From an uncultured Ectothiorhodospiraceae bacterium (lineage in GTDB: Bacteria > Pseudomonadota > Gammaproteobacteria > UBA6429 > Thiohalophilaceae): a stretch of 57,454 nucleotides of DNA. The stretch is taken from NCBI GenBank assembly GCA_947258695.1, contig CAMYJG010000018.1, positions 1-57,454 on the forward strand, in the 5' to 3' direction. Below the pieces are notes generated by a model. It was not told where the DNA came from. It worked only from the letters and a program-made list of their open reading frames with translations, and did not search any database. A program made the translations under genes and the position numbers. Of the stretch, positions 37,221 through 56,601 are shown in pieces; positions within the stretch are counted from its first letter, which is position 1; every line of letters begins with the position of its first letter.

Positions 37221-38084
37221 ATGACACCCGAACAATATTGCCAGGACAAAACAGCCAAAAGCGGTTCCAGCTTTTATTATAGTTTCTTGTTTTTACCCAA
37301 AACAAAACGTCTCGCTATCACAGCGCTCTATGCTTTTTGCCGCGAAGTAGATGATATTGCTGATTCTGAAATGGATAACAAAATTAAACTGGTTAAACTC
37401 GAATGGTGGCGCTCTGAAATTGAATCGTTATTTACCGGTAAAGCGAATCATCCAGTATCACATGCGCTCGAGCCTGCTATTAAAACCTTTGGCTTAAAGA
37501 AAGAGTACTTTTTAGAAATTATCGATGGCATGGAAATGGATCTTAACGAAGTACGCTTTGCGAACTTCGAAGAACTAAATCTGTATTGTTATCGTGTTGC
37601 CGGTGTAGTCGGTTTACTCTCAGCCACAATTTTTGGTTATAAAGATCCACAAACTCTCGAATATGCAAAAAAACTTGGGCTCGCGTTACAACTCACCAAT
37701 ATTATCCGCGATGTTCATGAAGACTCGTTACGTAATCGACTCTATTTACCGTTAGATGAGCTGGAAAAATTTGGTGTCACTGAGCAACAAATTTTTAACC
37801 GTGATAATTCAGATGAGTTTCATCAATTAATGTTGTTTCATGCAGAACGTGCCCATCAATGTTACCGTGATGCATATAAAACATTACCAAAACAAGACCG
37901 CTACGATCAGAAAACCGGTATTATTATGGCGGCTATTTATGAAAACACCTTAAATGAAATGGAAGATGACCAGCTGCAAGTATTAAAACACAAGGTCATG
38001 ATTCCTCCACTGAGAAAAATCATCATCGCTTTAAAAACACTGTTTAAAGAATGGTGGTTTTACCGGAAATATAAAACCGCATGA
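37221..38084 (+). CDS. hpnD: Presqualene diphosphate synthase HpnD
   Basis: HpnD condenses two farnesyl diphosphates to presqualene diphosphate. The 287-residue protein opens with the family signature KSGSSFYYSFLFLPKTKR, then has the aspartate-rich CREVDDIAD near residue 51 and LTNIIRDVHEDSLRNRLYLP. Its stop overlaps the start of hpnE by four bases, indicating translational coupling. Confidence 0.95.
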   Translation: MTPEQYCQDKTAKSGSSFYYSFLFLPKTKRLAITALYAFCREVDDIADSEMDNKIKLVKLEWWRSEIESLFTGKANHPVSHALEPAIKTFGLKKEYFLEIIDGMEMDLNEVRFANFEELNLYCYRVAGVVGLLSATIFGYKDPQTLEYAKKLGLALQLTNIIRDVHEDSLRNRLYLPLDELEKFGVTEQQIFNRDNSDEFHQLMLFHAERAHQCYRDAYKTLPKQDRYDQKTGIIMAAIYENTLNEMEDDQLQVLKHKVMIPPLRKIIIALKTLFKEWWFYRKYKTA

Positions 38085-39403
38085 ATAACGAACCTGTCGT
38101 TATTATCGGTGCAGGTTGGGCGGGTTTAGCCGCTGCCGTAAAACTCACCCAACAGGGTCATAAAGTAACTGTCCTTGAATCGGCAAAACAAGCCGGCGGC
38201 CGCGCCCGTTCTGTGAAGTTTGATGATATGACGGTTGATAATGGCCAACATATTTTAATTGGCGCTTACCACGAATGCCTAAACCTGATGCAAGTTGTTG
38301 GTGTTGATGTAAAGCAAAATTTGAAACGCCTGCCTTTGTTACTCACCGTTATAGACAAACAAGCCGACTTAATCTTACAAGCCCCTGCTCTACCAGCCCC
38401 ATTACATTTACTTTACGCCTTGGTCACTGCTAAAGGGCTTAAATTAAAAGATAAGTTTGCTGCGGTTAAATTTGGTTTAATTCTTAAAAAGCACAACTAC
38501 GAGTTTAAACAAGACACCTCGGTTGCTGAACTGTTTAAACTCACTGCTCAGACTGAAATATTGATCCGACAATTATGGGAACCACTGTGTCTTGCTACCA
38601 TGAACACCCCCATCGACTCAGCATCCGCCAATGTATTTATGAAAGTGTTTAAAGACGCCTTCACCAATAAAACTAAAGATGCCGATATGTTACTACCCAG
38701 AGTTGACTTGTCTCAGCTATTTCCAGATGCCGCCGTAGACTATATCGAAAAGCACGGCGGCAAAGTCCACTTAAAGGCCCGTGTGGAAAAATTAAATATT
38801 GAAAATAATAAACTTGTATCGGTTACAGCTAAAATTAATGATGCACTTGAAACAATTACAACATCAAAGGCCATTATTGCAACAGCACCACAGAACCTGA
38901 ACAAACTGATCACAACGAATACCGAGCTCGAAGCTATAAAAAAACAAGTTGCACAATACCAGTACGAACCCATCGTTACTGTCTATTTACACTATGCAGA
39001 TGATGTACAACTTACTTTGCCTATGACCGGCATGAGCAGCACGTTAAGCCAATGGGTATTTGATCGCGATTTACTCTGCCAGCAAGCAGGCCTGGTCAGC
39101 GTGGTAATTAGTAGCAGCGGTCAACATATGACACTTGATGATGATACACTGGCGCAAACGGTACACGATGAAATATCAACACTCTTTTCAAATAAAGCTG
39201 AATTACTAAAAAGCTTTGTTATTCGTGAAAAAAGAGCTACGTTTGCTTGCACTAAAAACATCAACGCTGTTCGGCCAAAAAGTGAAACTAACATACGAGG
39301 ACTAACCCTCGCAGGCGACTATACTGATACACACTACCCGGCCACCTTAGAAGGTGCTGTGCGCAGTGGATTAAATGCCGCCAACTTAACAATAAAACAT
39401 TAA
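38081..39403 (+). CDS. hpnE: Hydroxysqualene dehydroxylase HpnE
   Basis: HpnE is the FAD enzyme that reduces hydroxysqualene to squalene. The N-terminal dinucleotide motif VIIGAGWAGLAAAVKLTQQG is followed by ESAKQAGGRARSVKF and VDNGQHILIGAY. The C-terminal LAGDYTDTHYPATLEGAVRSG is the usual FAD-contacting end. Length 440 is normal. It starts inside the hpnD stop and lies 14 bp before yciK. Confidence 0.95.
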   Translation: MNNEPVVIIGAGWAGLAAAVKLTQQGHKVTVLESAKQAGGRARSVKFDDMTVDNGQHILIGAYHECLNLMQVVGVDVKQNLKRLPLLLTVIDKQADLILQAPALPAPLHLLYALVTAKGLKLKDKFAAVKFGLILKKHNYEFKQDTSVAELFKLTAQTEILIRQLWEPLCLATMNTPIDSASANVFMKVFKDAFTNKTKDADMLLPRVDLSQLFPDAAVDYIEKHGGKVHLKARVEKLNIENNKLVSVTAKINDALETITTSKAIIATAPQNLNKLITTNTELEAIKKQVAQYQYEPIVTVYLHYADDVQLTLPMTGMSSTLSQWVFDRDLLCQQAGLVSVVISSSGQHMTLDDDTLAQTVHDEISTLFSNKAELLKSFVIREKRATFACTKNINAVRPKSETNIRGLTLAGDYTDTHYPATLEGAVRSGLNAANLTIKH

Positions 39404-54157: not shown

Positions 54158-54196
54158 CTAAAGAGAACTTTTAGAGAACATCTAAAGCGCTCTAAA
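54158..54196 (+). promoter_or_regulatory. Candidate operator upstream of the Y-family polymerase
   Basis: Repeated half-sites are packed here: CTAAA at 54158, TTTAGA at 54170-54175, TCTAAA at 54181-54186 and again at 54191-54196. The first pair is inverted (CTAAA-N7-TTTAG), the second too (TTTAGA-N5-TCTAAA), and the last two are direct. Overlapping them is GAAC-N7-GAAC (54165-54179). No gammaproteobacterial LexA box (CTGT-N8-ACAG) was found. A regulatory role is inferred. Confidence 0.45.
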
Positions 54197-54227: not shown

Positions 54228-55529
54228 ATGCCAGAAACTACTGCGTCATACTGCTCTCCTATTCCCCCTGATTTGCCCTCAGAGCCGTGGCCACGTGCCA
54301 TTATCCTGGTGGATATGAATGCATTTTTTGCCTCGGTAGAGCAACACGACAAGCCGGAATGGCGTGGACGTCCCGTGGCTATCACAAATGGCTTGCAAGG
54401 CACCTGCATCATCACCTGCTCGTATGAAGCGCGTGCTATGGGCGTAAAAACAGGAATGCGCCTGAAGCAAGCTTATGAAAAATGCCCAACATTAATTCAA
54501 TGCCCTGCCCATCCTGAACGTTATGCCGAAGTTTCAACTTCAATCATGTCCGCGCTTTACACCATCACACCCGATGTTGAAGTTTTTTCTGTTGATGAAG
54601 CCTTTCTTGACGTCACTCGTTGTCAAAAAATTCTGGGAACCCCGCAAGAAATTGCGCAGCTGATTAAACAAACGGTTTATGAAGCATCTGGTTTACTTTG
54701 TTCAGTTGGTATGAGCGGAGACAAAACCACCGCAAAGCATGCTGCAAAACAAAACAAGCCAGATGGTTTAACCATTGTTCCACCTTCACAGGCTAAACAC
54801 TATTTACACAATGTACCGGTAACTGAACTATGTGGGATAAATAAAGGTATTGGTGGTTACCTGGCCGATCGTGGTGTTTTCACTTGTGGTGATATGGCGC
54901 AGTTACCGATTAGTGAACTAGGACGTCGCTTTGGCAATATCGGCCGACGTATCTGGAAAATGTGTTCGGGTGAAGATCCAGATAAAGTCACTACCGAAGT
55001 TAACACACCAAAGTCAGTTGGTCATGGCAAAGTGATGCCACCTGCTACAGTTGATGAAGATACTCTGCTCATGTATTTATTACACATGAGTGAAAAAGTC
55101 GCCGCACGTTTACGTCGCTATAATTTACAAGCAAACCATTTCTTTATTGGCTTAAATACAGCACAAGGCTGGATAAGCACAAAGCCACGCCTGGCAAATC
55201 CAACCCAGGATGAGCGCTTGATTTATGGACTGTGTAAAAACTTCCTCAAAGATAATTGGTCTGGTGCCGGAGCGCACCAGGTACAGGTAACGGCGCTTAA
55301 CCCTCATTCGGTTACCGGGCAACTCTTATTGTTTGATAGTGATAACGACTTAAGCTCAGGTAAAACCCACCATCATGTCATGGATAACATTAACGCGCGT
55401 TATGGAGAGTTAAGTTTAGCCCCTGCTCGCTTGCTCAACCGTTCCAGTATGCCAAACGTGATTGCACCTGCATGGAAACCGTTTGGTCTGCGGCAAACCA
55501 TCGAAAAAACAAAAGACGGTAAGAACTAA
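54228..55529 (+). CDS. Y-family DNA polymerase (DinB/ImuC-like)
   Basis: Y-family polymerases copy damaged templates. The catalytic carboxylates are in ILVDMNAFFASVE (near residue 27) and FSVDEAFLDV (near 125). The palm, fingers (EARAMGVKTGMRLKQA), helix-hairpin-helix region and little finger follow. Gln365-Leu-Leu-Leu-Phe fits the beta-clamp-binding consensus QLxLF. At 433 residues it is full length. It differs from DinB in detail and is best called DinB-like. Its stop overlaps the start of an SRAP gene by one base (TAATG), so the two are co-translated. Confidence 0.9.
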   Translation: MPETTASYCSPIPPDLPSEPWPRAIILVDMNAFFASVEQHDKPEWRGRPVAITNGLQGTCIITCSYEARAMGVKTGMRLKQAYEKCPTLIQCPAHPERYAEVSTSIMSALYTITPDVEVFSVDEAFLDVTRCQKILGTPQEIAQLIKQTVYEASGLLCSVGMSGDKTTAKHAAKQNKPDGLTIVPPSQAKHYLHNVPVTELCGINKGIGGYLADRGVFTCGDMAQLPISELGRRFGNIGRRIWKMCSGEDPDKVTTEVNTPKSVGHGKVMPPATVDEDTLLMYLLHMSEKVAARLRRYNLQANHFFIGLNTAQGWISTKPRLANPTQDERLIYGLCKNFLKDNWSGAGAHQVQVTALNPHSVTGQLLLFDSDNDLSSGKTHHHVMDNINARYGELSLAPARLLNRSSMPNVIAPAWKPFGLRQTIEKTKDGKN

Positions 55530-55942
55530 TGTGCGGCGGTGTTTATTACAATCATGATGGCCAGGATGTGCGTATTTATTTCCCTAATCCAAAAGCAATG
55601 CTGCCTGTGATGACTAAAGATAAAAAAATTGATTTATTACCGTGGGGACGACGAAAAGAACAACACGGACATTTGCCCCTGGGTGGATGGGCCAGGCTTG
55701 ATTCAATATATGCCGGACGTTGGGATAAATGGTTTCCAGTACCGGTTAAATTGCCGGTTAAACAATTTATGGAAAAAGATATTCAGGGTACAAGCCATTG
55801 GTTTGATATTACCAAAGGACAGTTTATTCAGGGTTTAATTGCACGCGACAAATATGAACAACGTGTTTATGTTGTCACCATCACACCTGAATTTGAGGAT
55901 GCAATACACCATCGCTGGCCACGCATTTTATCGGGTTGTTAA
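55529..55942 (+). CDS. Short SRAP (SOS response-associated peptidase) family protein
   Basis: SRAP proteins (YedK/HMCES) cap abasic sites in single-stranded DNA through Cys2. The protein begins MCGG, so Cys2 is present after removal of Met. The C-terminal ITPEFEDAIHHRWPRIL matches the SRAP IHDRMPVIL block (His127). The family's NARAET and GFYEW blocks, with the Asn and Glu of the active site, are not recognisable; the protein has GGWARLDS and HWFDI at those places. At 137 residues it is far shorter than YedK (about 220). It is coupled to the polymerase. Confidence 0.78.
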   Translation: MCGGVYYNHDGQDVRIYFPNPKAMLPVMTKDKKIDLLPWGRRKEQHGHLPLGGWARLDSIYAGRWDKWFPVPVKLPVKQFMEKDIQGTSHWFDITKGQFIQGLIARDKYEQRVYVVTITPEFEDAIHHRWPRILSGC

Positions 55943-56024: not shown

Positions 56025-56288
56025 CTATGCTTGAAATTCTTTAATGTAATTTGTAATGGCTGCTTTAGCATTTTCTTTGCTTTGATATGGCCCCTGGTCT
56101 AATCCTTCCCGGGTACTAAAATACCAGCGAGTGCCAATCGCAAATAAACGGTCTACACGAAATCTAACCTGCATTATATCTTCGCCTTTACGTGCTAAGC
56201 CTGTATTGCCCTGTTCTTTCATATCTAAACCACTTTGGTTATGTTCAGATTGAATTTCCGTTTCCAATGCAAGATGAGTTAAATTCAT
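56025..56288 (-). CDS. DUF6316-like small protein (paralogue 2)
   Basis: Start is taken at the ATG at 56288, eight bases after AGGAG, instead of an ATG 19 codons upstream. The 87-residue product ends with VDRLFAIGTRWYFSTREG and DQGPYQSKENA, the same pattern as the gene at 49420-49635. The N-terminal 45 residues are extra. A CRP-type site lies about 135 bp upstream. Confidence 0.7.
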   Translation of the reverse strand: MNLTHLALETEIQSEHNQSGLDMKEQGNTGLARKGEDIMQVRFRVDRLFAIGTRWYFSTREGLDQGPYQSKENAKAAITNYIKEFQA

Positions 56289-56601
56289 ATGCTCTACTCC
56301 TAGAACTTTTGTAGCGTTACAACAACTTGATTCATATTGAATCATTGCAGAGCAATCAAAGAGCTGCTTCCCAGCCAGTCATCATGCATATAGGTAAACT
56401 TTAGAGCGCGAGAAGAAACTTTTATGTGAGAATTATCACTTTTCTTAGAAAAAAAACTGACAATTACTGTGAGTAATTTATAATTTCTGTATATTAGGGC
56501 CAACCCGTGGAATAACGGGTAAGTGTATAATTTTTTTAAATATTTTATACGCAACCATAATATACACATACAAATACTAAGATATAAGATGATAATGAAT
56601 T
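56289..56601. other. Intergenic region with CRP-type site and hairpin
   Basis: This 313-bp divergent region holds a CRP-type dyad (56425-56440), a TTACT/AGTAA inverted repeat (56464-56476) and a 6-bp hairpin ACCCGT/ACGGGT (56503-56520). I see no convincing gene; an open frame here lacks any family signal. Confidence 0.5.
56425..56440. promoter_or_regulatory. CRP-type binding site upstream of the CRP-like gene
   Basis: TGTGA-GAATTA-TCACT matches TGTGA-N6-TCACA at nine of ten positions. It lies between the divergent DUF6316 gene and the CRP-type regulator, so autoregulation or control of DUF6316 is possible. Confidence 0.5.

What the first reader, a model, noticed from the sequence alone, without database searches (positions are those of the whole stretch)
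54228..55942. Y-family polymerase translationally coupled to a minimal SRAP protein
The polymerase keeps its catalytic residues and a clamp-binding QLLLF. Its stop overlaps the start of a 137-residue SRAP protein that keeps Cys2 and the IHxR block but lacks recognisable NARAET and GFYEW blocks. Lesion bypass and abasic-site capping would thus be produced in fixed ratio, and the short SRAP may have altered or lost cross-link chemistry, perhaps serving as a polymerase accessory.
Basis: partly seen in the sequence, partly recalled or inferred. Interest (0 to 1): 0.63.

Follow-up and report, generated by a model that had tools for sequence, protein, structure and literature searches.

The report
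SOS polymerase with mini-SRAP partner
A bacterial emergency DNA-copying enzyme is encoded together with a small relative of a protein that caps base-less sites in DNA, and both appear to be switched on by DNA damage; a paper of 2026 already reports such a link in outline, but this small form still keeps the residues needed for the capping chemistry.

Summary
A Y-family polymerase with intact catalytic residues (54228-55529) overlaps by one base (TAATG) a 137-residue protein (55529-55942). That protein has no Pfam or NCBIfam match, but its predicted structure (pLDDT 93) is clearly SRAP (Z 8.8-10.2 to 11 SRAP entries, next unrelated fold 2.4). It is a trimmed SRAP, ending after the H-x-R-x-P block. 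Among 60 relatives Cys2 is kept in 60, the catalytic Glu in 56, the His in 45; the Asn is Trp in 57. Lost chemistry is not the default reading.

The pair is real: the small gene follows this polymerase in 28 of 41 genomes that have it. One-base coupling is not conserved (14 of 52 loci), so "fixed ratio" fails. New here: LexA control. Of 40 loci examined, 31 have lexA directly upstream or a LexA box; in the window's genome the same box precedes lexA and, with one mismatch, a UmuD-like peptidase gene.

Best reading: an SOS translesion polymerase with a RecA-binding-like tail and a SRAP partner that recognises, perhaps cross-links, abasic sites. A PolY-SRAP association was published in outline in February 2026.

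The parts
54165..54179 (-). probable LexA box, read GTTCTCTAAAAGTTC on the - strand, 48 bases before the polymerase start
   Evidence: Pattern GTTCTCWNNNNGTTC occurs 3 times in the 3.2 Mb genome (reversed control 1); another copy ends 3 bases before lexA. Box of this type before the polymerase in 7 of 40 linked loci examined, against 6 of 820 control windows.
54228..55529 (+). Y-family (DinB-like) translesion DNA polymerase, 433 aa
   Evidence: PF00817 3.1e-44, PF11799 1e-11; D29, D123, E124 conserved; best PDB sequence match a DNA polymerase IV, 4.3e-55
55320..55334 (+). sliding-clamp motif QLLLF (residues 365-369)
   Evidence: read from the sequence; the motif's meaning is recalled
55377..55427 (+). 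RecA-N-terminus-like motif VMDNINARYGELSLAPA in the polymerase tail (residues 384-400)
   Evidence: Weak match to the start of DUF4113 in 4 of 4 tails scanned, E 0.008-0.085; in 48 of 67 polymerases this is the 18-mer most like the genome's own RecA N-terminus; motif described in PMC6511836
55529..55942 (+). mini-SRAP protein, 137 aa
   Evidence: AlphaFold2 pLDDT 93.1; 11 SRAP structures Z 8.8-10.2; profile-profile E 1.8e-4, probability 48%, to 31 canonical SRAPs
55532..55534 (+). Cys2, cross-linking residue of SRAP proteins
   Evidence: 60 of 60 in alignment A1, whose selection favours it
55688..55705 (+). WARLDS (54-59), counterpart of NARAET; Asn replaced by Trp
55772..55774 (+). Glu82, counterpart of YedK Glu105
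   Evidence: 56 of 60 Glu, 1 Asp; mapping
55907..55909 (+). His127, counterpart of YedK His160
   Evidence: 45 of 60 His, 11 Tyr, 2 Phe, 2 Cys

Best explanation
This is a LexA-controlled, damage-inducible operon for a translesion polymerase module. The polymerase keeps its catalytic residues and has a clamp motif and a RecA-N-terminus-like tail, so it probably acts as a PolY-RecA type mutasome (inferred from PMC6511836 and PMC12926913). The second gene makes a SRAP protein cut back to the catalytic core. After removal of Met1 its free Cys2, helped by Glu82 and His127, recognises abasic sites in single-stranded template and probably still forms a (possibly more reversible) thiazolidine link with them. 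Bound to or near the polymerase, it would shield an abasic site from breakage and hand it to the polymerase, or hold the polymerase there. Shown here: the genes, the fold (predicted), residue conservation, the linkage and the SOS signals. Inferred: binding to the polymerase, DNA binding, cross-linking and the hand-over.
For: SRAP fold and profile match. Cys2 60/60, Glu82 56/60, R56 55/60; in the 29 of 45 relatives from viral contigs that could be scored Cys2 28/29 and Glu82 28/29. Directly behind the polymerase in 28 of 41 genomes, against 3 with both genes apart and 10 with no such polymerase found at E 1e-100. SOS signals at 31 of 40 loci: lexA gene upstream 16, CTGTN8ACAG 8 (0 of 820 control windows), GTTCTCN5GTTC 7 (6 of 820). 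In the window's genome the same box precedes the only gene with a LexA DNA-binding domain and, with one mismatch, a lone S24 (UmuD-like) peptidase. Distant relatives lie near umuC with a UmuD-like ORF (L139, L142, L144) or behind umuC (L140). A Methylophaga plasmid has lexA - DNA polymerase IV - this gene, annotated 'hypothetical protein'. PMC9436759 (passages): Glu105 matters most after Cys2, Asn75 little. PMC12926913 (sections 21, 22): PolY-SRAP link and complex models.
Against: 39 of 68 genomes with this polymerase group have no mini-SRAP, so the polymerase does not need it. The polymerase tail looks equally conserved with and without it, so the tail is not obviously its docking site. 13 of 41 genomes have the mini-SRAP away from, or without, a detected polymerase of this group. 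9 of 40 loci show no SOS signal. His127 is replaced in 15 of 60, Glu82 in 4 of 60; the 30%-identity relatives L072 and L073 lack both, and a Nitrosomonas plasmid copy has Tyr for Cys2. N75A slowed YedK on one kind of broken abasic end (PMC9436759). My one model of the pair as a single chain was uninformative: pTM 0.52, block pLDDT 24-60 in the mini part. The box before the window's polymerase is not found before its recA, and with two mismatches allowed the pattern is near background (77 against 69 in the control).
Confidence: 0.55

Rival explanations
1. The mini-SRAP is a structural subunit only, like UmuD' or YolD for other Y-family polymerases: it binds and regulates the polymerase, and the abasic-site chemistry is lost.
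For: Asn replaced by Trp in 57 of 60, His by Tyr/Phe/Cys in 15 of 60, C-terminal segment absent. PMC12926913 (Discussion passage) calls SRAP-like proteins putative PolY-binding regulatory subunits. Residues invariant here but not canonical (R41, R42, Q101 in A1) could form a new interface; in the viral-contig copies position 101 is mostly Asp.
Against: Cys2 has no obvious need to be kept in 60 of 60 (with the bias that rows had to match from residue 1) and Glu82 in 56 of 60 if only structure counted.
Confidence: 0.25
2. The mini-SRAP is an independent abasic-site shield, merely co-regulated with the polymerase by LexA, without contact.
For: Copies without this polymerase next to them exist (for example L024, L029, L042, L069, L070), one on a plasmid with ssb two genes on. 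26 of 41 genomes have no canonical SRAP, so it could replace it. Spacing to the polymerase is variable.
Against: 28 of 41 genomes place it behind this one polymerase group. In G360 only 17 bases separate it from a canonical SRAP match, so the two are hardly redundant there.
Confidence: 0.15
3. It is a proteolytic or regulatory switch of the SOS response, as proposed for SRAP proteins in 2013.
For: PMC3765255 proposed SRAP as thiol autopeptidase and found SRAP genes in operons with dinB, umuDC and lexA.
Against: Later biochemistry (PMC9436759, passages) shows abasic-site chemistry with the same residues; nothing seen here suggests a processing site.
Confidence: 0.04

Closest known systems
Canonical SRAP proteins: E. 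coli YedK, human HMCES, Pfam PF02586
   Same: Same fold over 123-134 residues; Cys2, catalytic Glu and (in the window) His at matching places; R56 matches the Arg of NARAET
   Different: 137 instead of 217-238 residues, ending after H-x-R-x-P; Asn to Trp; no Pfam match for this protein and for only 2 of 60 relatives, best E 5e-4; WGRR and QGL where canonical SRAPs have WGL and AGL
PolY-SRAP association module (Timinskas et al., NAR 2026, PMC12926913)
   Same: A Y-family polymerase with RecA-NT motif linked to 'a group of proteins related to' SRAP; probably this pair or its umuC-linked cousin
   Different: It speaks of UmuC-like polymerases, whereas this one is nearest to polymerase IV models. 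In the parts of its main text that I saw, SRAP is named twice, without active-site analysis or LexA control; its supplement could not be read here, so identity with this family is unproven
dinB-SRAP and umuDC-SRAP operons (PMC3765255, 2013)
   Same: SRAP gene in an operon with a Y-family polymerase, sometimes with lexA
   Different: That paper gives the SRAP domain as about 220-260 residues; a short form is not mentioned in the passages I saw
E. [quoted passage not shown] subtilis YqjW-YqjX
   Same: Y-family polymerase with RecA-like tail motif plus a small SOS-induced partner, usually encoded next to it
   Different: The partner here is a SRAP fold, not a UmuD or YolD fold; the UmuD-like peptidase is unlinked in this genome

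Membership tests
SRAP superfamily (fold) | SRAP fold over the whole protein | tested here: met
   Z 8.8-10.2 to 11 entries, 123-134 of 137 residues aligned; next row 2.4; the 11 entries match the canonical SRAP profile
Canonical SRAP (YedK/HMCES) | Cys at position 2 | tested here: met
   window Cys2; 60 of 60
Canonical SRAP (YedK/HMCES) | catalytic Glu (YedK Glu105) | tested here: met
   window Glu82; 56 of 60
Canonical SRAP (YedK/HMCES) | catalytic His (YedK His160) | tested here: inconclusive
   present in the window (His127), 45 of 60 in the family
Canonical SRAP (YedK/HMCES) | Asn of NARAET (invariant in the 31 canonical sequences) | tested here: not met
   Trp54; Asn in 0 of 60, Trp in 57. 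Hence filed as a divergent SRAP branch, not as a canonical SRAP.
Canonical SRAP (YedK/HMCES) | match to Pfam PF02586 / NCBIfam model | tested here: not met
   no match for the window protein; 2 of 60 relatives, best 5e-4
Canonical SRAP (YedK/HMCES) | cross-link to abasic single-stranded DNA | not testable with these tools
   needs purified protein
Active Y-family DNA polymerase | IMS domains and the catalytic Asp, Asp, Glu | tested here: met
   activity itself not tested
UmuC / Pol V | complete DUF4113 tail | tested here: not met
   only its first ~23 positions, E 0.008-0.085, below the gathering score; the three UmuC proteins near distant mini-SRAPs score 71-77 bits
PolY-RecA type mutasome | RecA-NT motif in the polymerase tail | tested here: inconclusive
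   consistent, weak statistically
SOS (LexA) regulon | LexA box before the operon, shared with lexA | tested here: met
   LexA binding and induction not tested
PolY-SRAP complex | physical complex of the two proteins | tested here: inconclusive
   single-chain read-through model pTM 0.52, uninformative

The most novel reading that the evidence does not exclude
A translesion polymerase with its own covalent abasic-site sensor: the mini-SRAP subunit cross-links the abasic template site through Cys2, with Trp54 in place of the usual Asn making the link quickly reversible, and releases it to the polymerase's active site. That would turn abasic-site capping, elsewhere described as restraining mutagenic bypass, into a step of bypass, in an operon of a small LexA regulon.
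Probability: 0.25. Interest if true: 0.78.

Novelty: new variant of a known kind. Interest (0 to 1): 0.5.

Why it matters
HMCES capping is described as inhibiting mutagenic translesion synthesis (abstract of PMC9436759, seen in the listing). A SRAP core that evolution has linked to translesion polymerases of two kinds (dinB-like and umuC), under SOS control, suggests that the two processes can be coupled. It gives a small two-protein system in which that can be tested directly, and it points to a protein family that the public plasmid records seen here list as hypothetical.

Tried and rejected
Sequence searches of the small protein in the PDB gave only chance hits (single sequence: toxic shock toxin, E 0.0025; profile: BLIP-II, 2.3e-4). 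Neither appears in the fold results and they were not followed. Pfam and NCBIfam gave nothing for the window protein; PHROGs gave one weak hit (E 0.033). Human HMCES entries, SRAPs by profile, are not among the rows listed.

Avoidance or dependence between mini-SRAP and canonical SRAP: none seen; 15 of 41 genomes have both against 123 of 369 overall, Fisher p 0.73.

Single origin of the pairing: not shown. On a tree of 67 polymerases the mini-SRAP label needs 10 changes, 6 forced by well-supported branches, against 17.4 in shuffles; the bootstrap had not settled. The rows without label are 16 of the 39 polymerases that lack it, 3 that have it elsewhere in the genome, and L028, whose mini-SRAP is frameshifted, so its label adds a change. 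Two labelled rows (L005, L044) are from one genome. L126, a 10-residue fragment from a wrong start in my script, was dropped.

Polymerase residues that differ with and without mini-SRAP (W45, I52, L157) were not corrected for kinship and are only a lead.

Complex modelling: alignment A3 put polymerase rows onto the mini part and was discarded. A4 gave an uninformative fold, because only 6 of 27 rows cover the mini part.

Row selection: A1 (60 rows) took tblastn hits that start at query residue 1 and give at least 125 residues; 4 duplicates were dropped. Left out: truncated or frameshifted copies (L027, L028/L063, L064, L066, L071, L074, L075) and distant ones (L072, L073). This favours Cys2; one search checks several left-out copies. 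One search scored 29 of 45 viral-contig copies; 16 were lost by my ORF picker. In one search, 53 loci went in and 40 could be examined: 7 had under 150 bases upstream and in 6 the start of the polymerase was missing. The anchor differs from that: L060 counts as without signal but shows a CTGTN8ACAG box, as does L053, not examined; some control windows may hold true boxes before lexA. The 28 of 41 linked genomes add to 26 full-length pairs two (G131, G186) whose polymerase is cut by the contig end; several of the 41 matches are remnants (for example G103, G227). One search scored at most 10 candidates a genome. Duplicates among the 52 spacings were removed by hand.

Full report
WHAT IS THERE. 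The window encodes a 433-residue Y-family polymerase at 54228-55529 and a 137-residue protein at 55529-55942; the TAA of the first and the ATG of the second share one base. The polymerase has both Pfam domains of its family, the catalytic Asp29, Asp123 and Glu124, and a QLLLF clamp motif. The second protein has no Pfam or NCBIfam match up to E 1.

IT IS A SRAP. From 60 relatives (alignment A1) AlphaFold2 gives a model of mean pLDDT 93.1, pTM 0.88. Foldseek's best three PDB hits are YedK, YedK and BB2244. The second aligner puts 11 entries at Z 8.8-10.2 over 123-134 of 137 residues and the next, unrelated, row at 2.4. Seven of the 11 are YedK; the other four are structural-genomics entries, and all 11 match a profile of canonical SRAPs. 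In 6 of the 7 YedK rows the match ends at YedK residue 170: the small protein stops after the H-x-R-x-P block and lacks the canonical C-terminal part. A profile comparison with 31 canonical SRAPs gives E 1.8e-4, probability 48%, and 2 of 60 relatives touch PF02586 (best E 5e-4). The fold, not the sequence, carries the case.

ACTIVE SITE. The alignment places Cys2 on Cys2, Trp54 on the Asn of NARAET, Arg56 on its Arg, Glu82 on the Glu of GFYEW and His127 on the catalytic His. Among 60 relatives: Cys2 60; Glu82 56 (Asp 1); His127 45 (Tyr 11, Phe 2, Cys 2); Trp54 57, Asn 0. In YedK, Glu105 is the most important residue after Cys2, His160 changes to Ala or Gln cost about tenfold, and Asn75 to Ala has a very modest effect on internal abasic sites, though it hinders reaction with one kind of cleaved end (PMC9436759, passages seen). 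So the pattern fits kept chemistry with a changed pocket better than loss. A1 was built from hits that start at residue 1, which favours Cys2. Checks outside it: the viral-contig copies have Cys2 in 28 of 29 scored, of 45 found. A Nitrosomonas plasmid copy has Tyr instead and has lost its C-terminus; a Methylophaga pinxianii plasmid copy lacks the N-terminus as annotated; and two 30%-identity relatives have a Val-Cys near the start but lack Glu and His (read by eye).

THE PAIR. The mini-SRAP was found in 41 of 369 sampled genomes of the class. In 398 genomes sampled from the phylum, the 7 with a match are the window's own and 6 of the same class, though one plasmid copy is in Nitrosomonas, a betaproteobacterium. 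This polymerase group was found in 68 of 369 at E 1e-100. Both occur in 29 genomes; odds ratio 17.9, p 2.6e-15, without correction for kinship. In 26 of these 29 they are adjacent and in 3 apart. Two further genomes have them adjacent with the polymerase cut by the contig end, making 28 of 41 linked. In the other 10 no polymerase of this group was found at that threshold. Conversely, 39 of 68 polymerase genomes lack the mini-SRAP. On a tree of 67 polymerases its presence changes 10 times: it is an optional partner, gained or lost several times.

COUPLING IS NOT CONSERVED. In 52 distinct linked loci the one-base overlap occurs in 14, a spacing of 1-18 nt in 22, 29-31 nt in 2, and 101-755 nt in 14. 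Fixed-ratio production is not the conserved feature; lying behind a LexA-controlled polymerase gene is the commoner one.

SOS CONTROL. Of 40 linked loci with enough upstream sequence (of 53 put in), 16 have a lexA gene directly upstream, 8 a CTGTN8ACAG box and 7 a GTTCTCN5GTTC box; 9 have none of these. Control windows from the same loci: 0 of 820 and 6 of 820. The window has the third kind at 54165-54179, 48 bases before the polymerase. In its genome the pattern GTTCTCWNNNNGTTC occurs 3 times (1 for the reversed control). One copy ends 3 bases before the only gene with a LexA DNA-binding domain, one is before this operon, and one lies inside an unrelated ORF (L151). Of two one-mismatch copies, one lies 62 bases before a gene for a lone S24 peptidase of 161 residues that resembles UmuD, the other inside an unrelated ORF. 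With two mismatches the pattern is near background. The recA gene has no such box in the stretch held. That GTTCN7GTTC is the usual LexA box of Alphaproteobacteria is recalled, not taken from a call.

RECA. The polymerase tail V-M-D-x-I-N-x-R-Y-G-E-F resembles the start of DUF4113, which PMC6511836 (section 12 and passages seen) equates with the RecA N-terminal interaction motif. Four of 4 tails give DUF4113 as best Pfam hit, at E 0.008-0.085; in 48 of 67 polymerases this 18-mer is the one most like the genome's own RecA N-terminus. The tail looks as conserved in polymerases without mini-SRAP, so it is probably for RecA, not for the mini-SRAP.

OTHER CONTEXTS. In distant relatives (35-45% identity) the mini-SRAP lies near a UmuD-like ORF (recognised by eye) and umuC (L139, L142, L144), or is the second gene behind umuC (L140) (umuC confirmed by Pfam in L140, L142 and L144). 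A Methylophaga thalassica plasmid carries lexA, 'DNA polymerase IV' and this gene, with ssb the second gene after it. The public annotation calls the gene 'hypothetical protein' in all five plasmid hits. The window's genome also has one full-length SRAP and one further Y-family polymerase.

MECHANISM. I think it most likely that this is a damage-induced translesion module in which a SRAP core recognises abasic template sites for a RecA-assisted polymerase. Shown: genes, predicted fold, residues, linkage, SOS signals. Inferred: contact with the polymerase, DNA binding, cross-linking. My own complex model was uninformative. PMC12926913 (outline, abstract, sections 21-23 and passages seen) reports that representatives of all 11 of its association types gave complex models above its thresholds.

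NOVELTY. SRAP genes in operons with dinB were described in 2013 (PMC3765255, passages seen) and a specific link of UmuC-like polymerases with SRAP-related proteins in February 2026 (PMC12926913). What I did not find in the listings, or in the parts of those papers I saw, is the short form's active-site pattern, its C-terminal trimming, or the LexA linkage of this pair. Hence: new variant of a known kind.

Noticed in passing
L145 (G360:C11), canonical SRAP match at 37783-38406 and mini-SRAP match at 38424-38831, both - strand: A full-length SRAP gene follows the mini-SRAP with 17 bases between the matches, so one locus has both forms.
   Followed up: partly
G000:C15:57141-57155 and the gene after it (L153 953-1438): A lone UmuD-like S24 peptidase behind a one-mismatch copy of the same LexA box; possible trans-acting partner of the window's polymerase.
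   Followed up: partly
L189, 4001-4429: In Pseudomonas sp. XWY-1 the annotated start lies 18 bases inside the ORF and hides the Met-Cys start; public annotation may miss Cys2 elsewhere too.
   Followed up: no
L191-L235: 45 IMG/VR viral contigs, 20 of them 33-39 kb long, encode mini-SRAP relatives (best segments 41-56% identity), 11 with a umuC-like ORF in the piece held, yet a search of 50,697 phage records found none.
   Followed up: partly
window 56025-56345 (-) and L150 1636-1857 (-): A DUF6316 protein sits next to the operon, and a similar-looking short protein sits next to lexA in the same genome (by eye).
   Followed up: no
L011, 2916-3200 (+): A fragment with RCLVSMSEFHEW, like the GFYEW block of canonical SRAP, is divergent from the polymerase at a contig end.
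   Followed up: no
polymerase residues 45, 48, 52, 157 (window 54360-54383, 54696-54698): W45, R48, I52 and L157 are commoner in polymerases with mini-SRAP than in those without (for example W45 83% against 30%); not corrected for kinship.
   Followed up: no
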